This document shows positions 48,205 to 50,894 of a stretch of DNA of 64,000 bases, in pieces. Source of the DNA: Jannaschia pohangensis. GTDB taxonomy: Bacteria > Pseudomonadota > Alphaproteobacteria > Rhodobacterales > Rhodobacteraceae. The DNA is taken from assembly GCF_900113875.1 (NCBI RefSeq), contig NZ_FORA01000003.1, positions 310,001 through 374,000 of the forward strand. Reading direction: 5' to 3'. The stretch's first letter is position 1. Each line of letters starts with the position of its first letter. Made by a program: the position numbers and the translations under genes. The notes below the pieces were generated by a model. The model was not told the origin of the DNA, did no database searches, and was given only the letters and a program-made list of their open reading frames with translations.

Positions 48205-48284
48205 GATCTTCAACAACTCTTGCTCTTCCTCGCTCCCGGTTTTATTGGCCGGGAATGTCGATCATGACATATGGGGAGAGAGAA

Positions 48285-48623
48285 ATGGCAAAGTTGGACA
48301 AGATGACCAAACAGGATTTGGCAAAAGAGCGCAAGGAAGCCGAAGCGCGTCTGAAGGAAATCGCCAAGGCCGAGGCGGAATTCGACGGGCGGCGCCTGAA
48401 GGAATTGCGCGCCGAAATCGAAGCGATGCTGGCCAAGGAAGGGTATTCCATTGCGGCGCTTTTCGACGGCAAGGCCCCCAAGAAGGGGACCAAGGCCAAG
48501 GCCGCACCGAAATTCCGCCATCCCGAGAATGCATCGGTGACCTGGTCGGGACGTGGCCGTCAGCCGCAATGGTACAAGGATGCCATCGCAGCCGGAAAGA
48601 CCGACAAGGACCTGTCTGTCTGA
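48285..48623 (+). CDS. H-NS/HvrA-like nucleoid protein
   Basis: The 112-residue protein has an N-terminal coiled coil rich in K, E and A (residues 3-55, oligomerisation) and the C-terminal H-NS DNA-binding core TWSGRGRQPQWYKDAI near 87-102. The closest described relative is HvrA of Rhodobacter, a trans-acting regulator of photosynthesis and nitrogen-fixation genes that binds AT-rich DNA. GGGGAGAG precedes the ATG at 48285. Confidence 0.92.
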   Translation: MAKLDKMTKQDLAKERKEAEARLKEIAKAEAEFDGRRLKELRAEIEAMLAKEGYSIAALFDGKAPKKGTKAKAAPKFRHPENASVTWSGRGRQPQWYKDAIAAGKTDKDLSV

Positions 48624-48651: not shown

Positions 48652-48679
48652 AAGGGGCCGCAGGACGGCCCCTTTTTTT
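48652..48679. terminator. Bidirectional intrinsic terminator
   Basis: GGGGCCG (48654-48660) pairs with CGGCCCC (48666-48672) and is followed by seven Ts on the plus strand. On the minus strand the same stem is followed by TTCTTGCGTTTT. It ends both the H-NS-like gene and the convergent metalloprotease gene. Confidence 0.85.
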
Positions 48680-48686
48680 CCTGATA

Positions 48687-50894
48687 TCAGCGGTCGATGG
48701 GCAGGATGATCTGCAGGCCGTCGCGGCGGATCAGATCATTGCTCTCGATTCCCTGACGCAGCAGGTTCTGCACGTCCGGCACCCGCAGTTTCAGCACATC
48801 TTCGGGCGCGGCCAAGGTCCGCTCAAGGAAGGCCGAGGCTTCCGGTTGGCCGGTAAAGCCAAGCGAGATGATCGCATAGCGCGCCACGTCGTCATTCGCC
48901 TCGGCCACCGAACCCCCGGCCTTTGTCGCAAGACGGGCCGCCGTTTCCGAACGCAACTCGGTCGGCTCTGCCAGGTCGATCAGGAACTGGACCAGCTCCG
49001 GGTCGCTTGTTTGACCGGCAAGATAGCCCAGTCCGATGACCGCCCCGACGATACCTTTCTCCGCACGGCGCAGGTCGCCATCATCCACGCCGCCCCTGGA
49101 GACATAGGCCTGCAAGGGTTCCGCCGCGAGGGGCGAGCCGATCAGGCCAAGGGTCAGGGCGATATTCTCGTGGTACGTCACCAGCGACGGATCGGCCAGC
49201 ATCTCGACCAATTCGGGAACGACGTCGGGGCCATAGCTGGCCGCCACGTCGAGCGGCAGACCCTCGAAATAGATCTGCGTCACGAAGTCCTTGATCGGTT
49301 GGATCGGCACGGCGCCAGGCGTGAAATCGCCCACCCGCTCCAGCCGGATCACGTCATCGGCCTGCGGCAAGGCCAGCGCGCCCGTCAAGGCACCCGTGGC
49401 CGGGGAACCCGCCCGTGCCAGTAGCGAATTGCATTCCGCGTTCGTGACCCGGATCCGACTGCTGCCGATGGAACCGAACATCACGAAATTGCTGGAGGAA
49501 TTATGCGGCAGGCCCGTGTTGTGCCCGAACTCATGCCCCCAGAGGATGCCTTCGAGCGATGCCGTGAAGCGTTCGGTGATGAAGGATGACCCCGGCGTCT
49601 GGCCGCAGCCGATGAAGGAGCTGTTGAAGCCCCCGGCGCAGAAATTGACGTCATCGACGACCTTGATGTTTCCGGCCAGAGCGAAGACCGCCTGCAATTC
49701 TGCCGAGGTGTCCAGACTGCCATCGCCCGTGGTGAAGACACCCACGTCGCCATTGCGGCGCAGCCGGACCGGACAGGCGACATCGCCGCCGCCGTCATCC
49801 GCTTGAAGAACCGCAGAGGCGTCCGCGAAGATGCGGTCGACATCCGCATTGGTCAGCGTCGTATCCTCGTGACGCGAGACAGTCAGAGCGATCTCGGCGG
49901 TCGGCCGGATCGGCGACGGGACAAGTCGGTAGCGGAATGTGTTGCCCCGCTCCGGATTGTCATAGGCCATCACGATCATCTCGGGCGCGCCATCACCGTC
50001 GAGGTCGGCCACGGCGGCTCCCGCGCCCTGTCCTTCCCACCCGACACCCGGCAGCATGGCGAAAGGTTCGGACCAACTCTCGACGGCACCGTTCGGAGCC
50101 ATGTTCATGCCGACACGATAGCGGAAATTATTGCTCCGCTCGGGGTTGTCATAGGCCATGAAGATGACATCCGGGACACCGTTGCCATCGAGGTCGGTGA
50201 CATCCATCCCGGCGCCCTGACCTTCCCAGCCGACACCGGGGGCGGTCAGATAGCTGCTCGACCAAGCCGTGGCGATTCCGTTGGAATTGAGGTTCAGGCC
50301 GACCCGGTAGCGGAAGGAATTGCCGCGGACCGGATCGTCATAGGCCATCAGGATCATGTCAGGGCGGCTGTCCCCATCGAGTTGGGCCAGGGCAACCGCC
50401 GCGCCTGCCCCCTTGTGGCCGACGCCGGGAACCTGGATCGACCCGGACCAGCTGGCCGCGACACCGGCGCTGTTGAGGTCCTTGCCCACGCGGTAGCGGA
50501 ATGAATTGGCCCCCGTCGGGTCGTCATAGGCCATCAGGATCATGTCGGGACGGCTGTCCCCGTCGATGTTGCCGACGGCCACACCCGCGCCGTCGCCCTC
50601 CCATCCCAGACCGTCCACACGGATGAAATCGCTGGACCAGCTGGTGGCCTGACCCGCGGCGTTGACGTTGAACCCGATGCGATAGCGGAAGTTGTTGTCC
50701 CGCGCGGGATCGTCATAGGCCATGAAGATCAGGTCCGGTCGCGGATTGCTGTCGATCTGGGCAAAGGTGGCACCGGCGCCGGCGCCTTCCCACCCGACAC
50801 CAGGGATTGTGGTGAACTGAGCGGCGGCAAGACCCGGCAAAAGGGGGACGCTGACCGCAGCAAAGGCTGCGGCGCGCAGGACGGAATACGTCAT
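48687..50894 (-). CDS. Secreted FG-GAP / metzincin / HEAT-repeat protein
   Basis: The 735-residue protein has a Sec signal (residues 1-25, cut after AAA). Residues 26-340 hold five tandem repeats of about 62 residues. Each starts PGVGWEGxGAG, continues with a calcium-loop-like DLDGDxxPDMI and ends FRYRVGxN, which fits an FG-GAP/VCBS beta-propeller. Near 454-464 is [11 protein letters not shown], the extended zinc motif HExxHxxGxxH of metzincins, with a methionine (VMFGS) soon after as the Met-turn. Residues about 580-700 look like HEAT repeats ([21 protein letters not shown]). The start at 50894 follows from the signal peptide. Secreted zinc-peptidase activity is inferred; the substrate is unknown. 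Confidence 0.85.

What the first reader, a model, noticed from the sequence alone, without database searches (positions are those of the whole stretch)
48687..50894. New domain combination: FG-GAP-type propeller + metzincin + HEAT repeats
Five 62-residue GVGWEGxGAG repeats precede a textbook HExxHxxGxxH zinc site with a Met-turn, followed by HEAT-like repeats, all in one secreted protein. I know of no described family with this order; it could be an exported peptidase acting on surface or host proteins.
Basis: partly seen in the sequence, partly recalled or inferred. Interest (0 to 1): 0.75.

Follow-up and report, generated by a model that had tools for sequence, protein, structure and literature searches.

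The report
Secreted propeller–zinc-peptidase–HEAT fusion protein
One bacterium carries a gene its close relatives lack, for an exported protein that joins a five-bladed, probably target-binding propeller to a probable zinc peptidase and a helical repeat tail; the same propeller module is bolted onto quite different enzymes in distant bacteria, so this looks like a new assembly of known parts.

Summary
The minus-strand gene 50894-48687 encodes 735 aa: a Sec-type signal peptide, five 62/63-residue repeats (median identity 56%), the only HExxHxxGxxH in the six-frame window, a Met at matrixin spacing, and HEAT repeats. AlphaFold2 gives a closed propeller of five four-stranded blades; best structural matches are GH43 propellers (Z 18). 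The metzincin fold could not be predicted and rests on sequence only. First, the propeller is a portable module (46-59% identity) fused elsewhere to tyrosinases, a subtilase, an M57 peptidase and transglutaminase-like domains. Second, the metzincin+HEAT half occurs without the propeller in three other genomes of the same family. The window gene thus fuses two separately existing units. It is absent from 19 same-genus species, where hns and deoD are direct neighbours. The full three-part order was found nowhere else in the collections searched. Most likely it is an exported metallopeptidase whose propeller docks it on a target, possibly a glycan. It works like CpaA or Mep72 but belongs to neither. 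New variant of a known kind; activity and ligand are inferred.

The parts
48687..50894 (-). CDS, 735 aa, propeller + metzincin-like + HEAT
   Evidence: absent at this site in 19 same-genus species
50820..50894 (-). Sec-type signal peptide, residues 1-25 ([25 protein letters not shown])
   Evidence: read from sequence; pLDDT under 50 for residues 1-25
49905..50819 (-). Five-bladed VCBS/FG-GAP-type beta-propeller, residues 26-330, with velcro strand 28-31
   Evidence: Pfam; AlphaFold2 pLDDT about 65-93 by 10-residue block; VIA Z 18 to GH43 propellers; 46-59% identity to modules in other phyla
49410..49904 (-). Metzincin-like peptidase domain, residues 331 to about 495
   Evidence: relatives of the same family; hhalign 96.5% to a metzincin group; PDB metzincins by profile
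49503..49535 (-). [11 protein letters not shown] zinc-binding motif, residues 454-464
49479..49481 (-). Met472, putative Met-turn; Met invariant in the 7 aligned proteins
48795..49262 (-). HEAT-repeat region, about residues 545-700
   Evidence: HEAT_2 1.6e-7; helix pairs, pLDDT about 53-77 over residues 590-700; alphaRep matches
48652..48674 (-). Terminator-like hairpin between hns and this gene, convergent
   Evidence: not above the shuffle expectation; similar hairpin at the empty site in relatives

Best explanation
The gene encodes an exported zinc metallopeptidase built from two units that exist separately. The N-terminal unit is a five-bladed VCBS/FG-GAP-type propeller that docks the enzyme on a target, most plausibly a glycan or glycosylated surface polymer, possibly with Ca2+ held in the blade 4/5 AB loops. 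The C-terminal unit is a metzincin-like peptidase fused to HEAT repeats that probably form a substrate- or partner-binding scaffold. The Sec signal peptide takes it to the periplasm, and the genome's type II secretion system may carry it outside. Shown: gene, signal peptide by sequence, five blades (predicted structure), zinc motif and Met by sequence, HEAT repeats, modular spread, extra gene between hns and deoD. Inferred: zinc binding, proteolysis, ligand, final location.
For: Domain matches. Five closed blades. The propeller is fused elsewhere to tyrosinase, subtilase, M57 peptidase and transglutaminase-like domains, as expected for a targeting module. Blades carry three motifs of the VCBS superfamily (PMC8023676): the AB-loop D-rich motif (full only in blade 5), the CD-loop G...W in 4 of 4 complete blades, and the DA'-loop GW in 4 of 5 blades, which helps form the sugar pocket in tachylectin-2 and PVL. 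The metzincin+HEAT unit occurs alone in three genomes of the family with HExGH, Met and four Cys conserved. A profile of seven proteins matches MMP-1 (3.8e-6) and, over nearly the whole domain, a snake-venom metalloproteinase (7.7e-6). A lipoprotein secretin with an adjacent GspF-like gene, as in type II secretion, is in the genome.
Against: No confident structure of the peptidase domain. The seven-protein profile includes three clear PEP-CTERM metzincins that may drive the PDB match. The third zinc ligand is not kept at the standard place in two of the three metzincin-HEAT relatives (L016, L017), so part of the family may be inactive. The GW of the DA' loop is W in only some related modules (L007 S,N,S,S,W; L009 H,H,F,H,W), so sugar binding by that residue is not general. 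Type II export is inferred from gene presence only.
Confidence: 0.6

Rival explanations
1. Same enzyme, but the propeller is not a lectin: it is a protein-binding or purely structural cap, as in integrins, and the HEAT part binds the substrate.
For: VCBS-type propellers also serve protein-protein contacts (PMC9218822). The most conserved blade residues across modules are NxFRY, AYD and the GxG glycines rather than the W. First Foldseek matches are integrin alpha chains.
Against: W is kept in four of five blades here and in all five of the Dokdonella and Tahibacter modules; partners elsewhere (tyrosinase, subtilase) share no obvious protein substrate.
Confidence: 0.25
2. A catalytically dead enzyme: a binding protein that keeps the metzincin scaffold.
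For: Two of three metzincin-HEAT relatives lack the third His at the standard place; Pfam peptidase matches are below cut-off.
Against: The window protein has the complete HExxHxxGxxH and a Met at MMP spacing.
Confidence: 0.12
3. The HExxH is chance and the C-terminal half is only a helical repeat protein.
For: Structure prediction of residues 330-540 failed; the motif occurs once.
Against: HExGH, a following Leu, the Met and Cys positions are invariant in 7 proteins at 21-28% identity; hhalign 96.5% over 90 columns to PEP-CTERM metzincins.
Confidence: 0.03

Closest known systems
CpaA (Acinetobacter, M72 metzincin glycoprotease, T2SS; PMC7542363)
   Same: Metzincin with extended zinc motif and Met-turn, joined to repeated glycan-binding-like beta domains, secreted
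   Different: Four Ig-like repeats, not a propeller; no HEAT repeats; no match to its NCBIfam model in the window protein
Mep72 (Pseudomonas aeruginosa biofilm metzincin with two CBMs; PMC4334185)
   Same: Sec-exported metzincin plus carbohydrate-binding modules
   Different: CBMs at the C-terminus, no propeller, no HEAT; type II export shown there, only inferred here
VCBS / integrin-like / tachylectin propellers (PMC8023676)
   Same: Four-stranded blades with AB, CD and DA' loop motifs; bacterial tachylectin-like propellers also sit in secreted multidomain enzymes
   Different: Here five blades of 62-63 residues carrying both a D-rich AB loop (absent in tachylectins) and the GW loop; no Pfam or NCBIfam family of its own was found
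Metzincin-HEAT proteins of the same bacterial family (L015, L016, L017)
   Same: Same metzincin + HEAT order, signal peptide, conserved Cys
   Different: No propeller; 19-25% identity; third zinc ligand not always kept
Dokdonella/Tahibacter propeller-tyrosinase (L003, L004)
   Same: Same five-repeat propeller, 56-59% identity, same N-terminal position
   Different: Tyrosinase instead of peptidase + HEAT

Membership tests
VCBS/FG-GAP beta-propeller superfamily | Consecutive four-stranded blades closing into a ring | tested here: met
   5 x 4 strands, N-terminal strand completes blade 5, pLDDT mostly 70-93; best matches GH43 propellers, Z 18.2, rmsd 3.4, 250 aligned
VCBS/FG-GAP beta-propeller superfamily | FG-GAP profile match over curated cut-off | tested here: met
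   FG-GAP_3 33.8 bits (cut-off 26.9), FG-GAP 30 bits (cut-off 22.1)
VCBS/FG-GAP beta-propeller superfamily | DxDxDG metal-binding loop AB | tested here: inconclusive
   Full in blade 5 (DLDGDG), near in blade 4 (DLDGNG), degenerate in blades 1-3; the paper says no motif is universal
VCBS/FG-GAP beta-propeller superfamily | G and W of loop CD; GW of loop DA' | tested here: met
   G...W in all 4 complete blades; GW in blades 1, 2, 4, 5, GH in blade 3
Metzincin superfamily | HExxHxxGxxH | tested here: met
   [11 protein letters not shown], residues 454-464
Metzincin superfamily | Met-turn downstream | tested here: inconclusive
   Met472 at MMP-1 spacing and invariant in 7 proteins, but the turn itself was not modelled
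Metzincin superfamily | Metzincin fold | tested here: inconclusive
   Single-sequence AlphaFold2 failed, mean pLDDT 34
Metzincin superfamily | Zinc binding and proteolysis | not testable with these tools
   needs purified protein
Known metzincin families M10, M12, M57, M66 (Pfam) | Profile match over curated cut-off | tested here: not met
   M10 14-15 of 24 bits, M66 12-13 of 20.6, Reprolysin_5 12-13 of 27, M57 not listed; no NCBIfam match
HEAT repeats | HEAT profile match and paired antiparallel helices | tested here: met
   HEAT_2 32 bits, cut-off 27.7, in the C-terminal part; helices 559-694 predicted
CpaA / Mep72 glycoproteases | Family model or same domain order | tested here: not met
   No NCBIfam match; no Ig-like or CBM domains found by Pfam
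Tachylectin-like lectins | Sugar binding in the DA' pocket | not testable with these tools
   GW present in 4 of 5 blades; binding unknown

The most novel reading that the evidence does not exclude
The five-bladed module is an undescribed family of portable lectin-type propellers that delivers unrelated enzymes (peptidases, tyrosinases, transglutaminase-like enzymes) to a common extracellular glycan, and the window protein is a previously unknown glycan-targeted metzincin whose HEAT tail selects the substrate.
Probability: 0.3. Interest if true: 0.6.

Novelty: new variant of a known kind. Interest (0 to 1): 0.4.

Why it matters
It shows a recurring, highly regular five-bladed propeller moving as a unit between very different secreted enzymes across phyla, probably including an archaeon (one truncated contig). 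If the propeller binds a common glycan, its ligand could be found once and would explain many unannotated exported enzymes. The window protein would add a glycan-targeted metzincin with a HEAT scaffold, a combination not seen elsewhere in the data searched.

Tried and rejected
Mobile-element origin: no match in 50,697 phage records or in viral contigs. Plasmid matches were only three weak ones to Streptomyces VCBS repeat proteins. No foreign base composition: gene GC 0.646 and GC3 0.787, ecm and deoD 0.63-0.64 and 0.78-0.83. Structure of the metzincin: prediction without relatives failed twice; the loci that could have deepened the alignment came from a source the tool does not accept, so they were not sent, and viral-contig pattern scans gave only unrelated metallopeptidases. 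The full-length Foldseek search gave mixed propellers (integrins, sialidases) at rmsd about 7 or more, so the VIA realignment was used. A wider metzincin-HEAT search over class and phylum gave metzincins without HEAT, or chance matches. PDB search with the full alignment A2 found nothing. No paper describing the three-part order was found.

Full report
What is there. The gene runs from 50894 to 48687 on the minus strand and encodes 735 aa with a Sec-type signal peptide and a GAGG 6 nt upstream of the start codon. The five repeats start at residues 32, 95, 157, 220 and 283. The four complete ones are 62-63 residues long, and all ten pairs are 49-70% identical. Pfam sees FG-GAP repeats over cut-off, HEAT_2 just under it (over it when the C-terminal part is scanned alone), and only weak, below-cut-off matches to peptidase families at the zinc motif. 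NCBIfam has no model for the protein.

The propeller. With eight related modules as alignment, AlphaFold2 gives blades of four strands (37-94, 102-156, 165-222, 228-282, 290-325). The fifth blade is completed by strand 28-31, the usual velcro closure. The realigned PDB matches are led by GH43 enzymes over residues 26-332, Z 18.2, rmsd 3.4, 250 residues; that GH43 catalytic domains are five-bladed propellers is from general knowledge. This shows a shared fold, not a shared function. The blades carry the loop motifs described for the VCBS superfamily (PMC8023676): the D-rich AB loop, complete in blade 5 only; G and W in the CD loop of all four complete blades; and GW in the DA' loop of four of five blades. 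In tachylectin-2 and PVL the GW loop helps form the sugar pocket. In related modules that W is often replaced: reading the alignment, L007 has S, N, S, S, W and L009 has H, H, F, H, W. Sugar binding is therefore a lead only.

A portable module. A pattern-based scan of about 85,000 bacterial and archaeal genomes found nine loci with the propeller, in Dokdonella, Tahibacter, Thiodiazotropha, a Deltaproteobacterium, an Acidobacterium, a Zixibacterium, a Saprospiraceae member, Chitinophaga and a Methanoperedens-type archaeon. Reading the frames and Pfam, the partners are tyrosinase (L003, L004), subtilase (L009), M57 peptidase (L007, propeller at the C-terminus) and transglutaminase-like domains (L005, L008; Pfam matches below cut-off). 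In L006, L010 and L011 the frame is cut or broken, so their partners are unknown. No metzincin-HEAT unit was seen in any of the nine.

The peptidase-HEAT unit. Searching 296 genomes of the same family with residues 331-735 gave three proteins of 423-448 aa (open frame) with the same order, metzincin then HEAT, and no propeller (L015, L016, L017). Invariant across the four are HExGH, a following Leu, a Met and four Cys. The third zinc ligand is His in L015 but not in L016 or L017 at the standard place. A further group of PEP-CTERM-like metzincins (L018, L053, L054) shares a C...GCG...G motif upstream of the zinc site. hhalign links the two groups at 96.5% probability over 90 columns. A profile of all seven matches MMP-1 at the active site (3.8e-6) and a snake-venom metalloproteinase over positions 19-159 of 169 (7.7e-6). 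Caveat: the PEP-CTERM members may carry much of that score. The fold itself could not be predicted (pLDDT 34).

Origin. None of 19 same-genus genomes has the gene. In all 19 the hns-type gene and deoD are direct neighbours, and in 15 the ecm gene precedes hns in the stretch held (in L043, L047 and L048 ecm was not seen in the short stretch, and L042 shows an altered ecm). In the ten relatives read, deoD starts shortly after a hairpin that follows hns. In the window genome the gene sits between such a hairpin (48652-48674) and deoD, convergent with hns. Gain in this lineage, probably by horizontal transfer, is the simplest reading; loss in all 19 others is less likely. The base composition is not foreign.

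How it most likely works. Sec export to the periplasm is read from the signal peptide. The genome has a lipoprotein secretin of 670 aa next to a GspF-like gene, so type II secretion is probably available; that this protein uses it is inferred. The propeller is most plausibly the docking part and the metzincin the cutting part, with the HEAT tail a scaffold for substrate or partner. Secreted metzincins joined to glycan-binding parts are known (CpaA, PMC7542363; Mep72, PMC4334185), so the working principle is not new. The architecture is, as far as these searches reach.

Limits. The genome scan used short peptide patterns mostly from the propeller, and the family and phylum searches sampled 296 and 398 genomes, so rarer copies of the full architecture may exist. 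The tools did not give the organism's name.

Noticed in passing
L003:5734-8451, L004:5389-8325: Tyrosinases of Dokdonella and Tahibacter carry the same five-bladed propeller at their N-terminus.
   Followed up: partly
L005:2277-4286, L008:5902-7722: Transglutaminase-like proteins (weak Pfam matches) with the same propeller, in a Zixibacteria MAG and Thiodiazotropha.
   Followed up: partly
L009:3043-6945 and L067: Two subtilases in one Deltaproteobacterium genome with the same propeller at the C-terminus.
   Followed up: partly
L018, L053, L054: PEP-CTERM-like metzincins with a shared C...GCG...G...VE motif before HExxHxxxLxH; no Pfam or NCBIfam peptidase model covers them over its cut-off.
   Followed up: partly
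L010:5902-6845: The Chitinophaga propeller is split over several reading frames, a possible pseudogene or sequencing error.
   Followed up: no
L042: In one same-genus genome the ecm gene next to hns gives only short, divergent pieces, perhaps altered or replaced.
   Followed up: no
window 48255-48623; L030-L048: The hns-type gene next door is far less conserved between species (42-71% identity) than its neighbours ecm and deoD; several species match only from residue 43 on.
   Followed up: no
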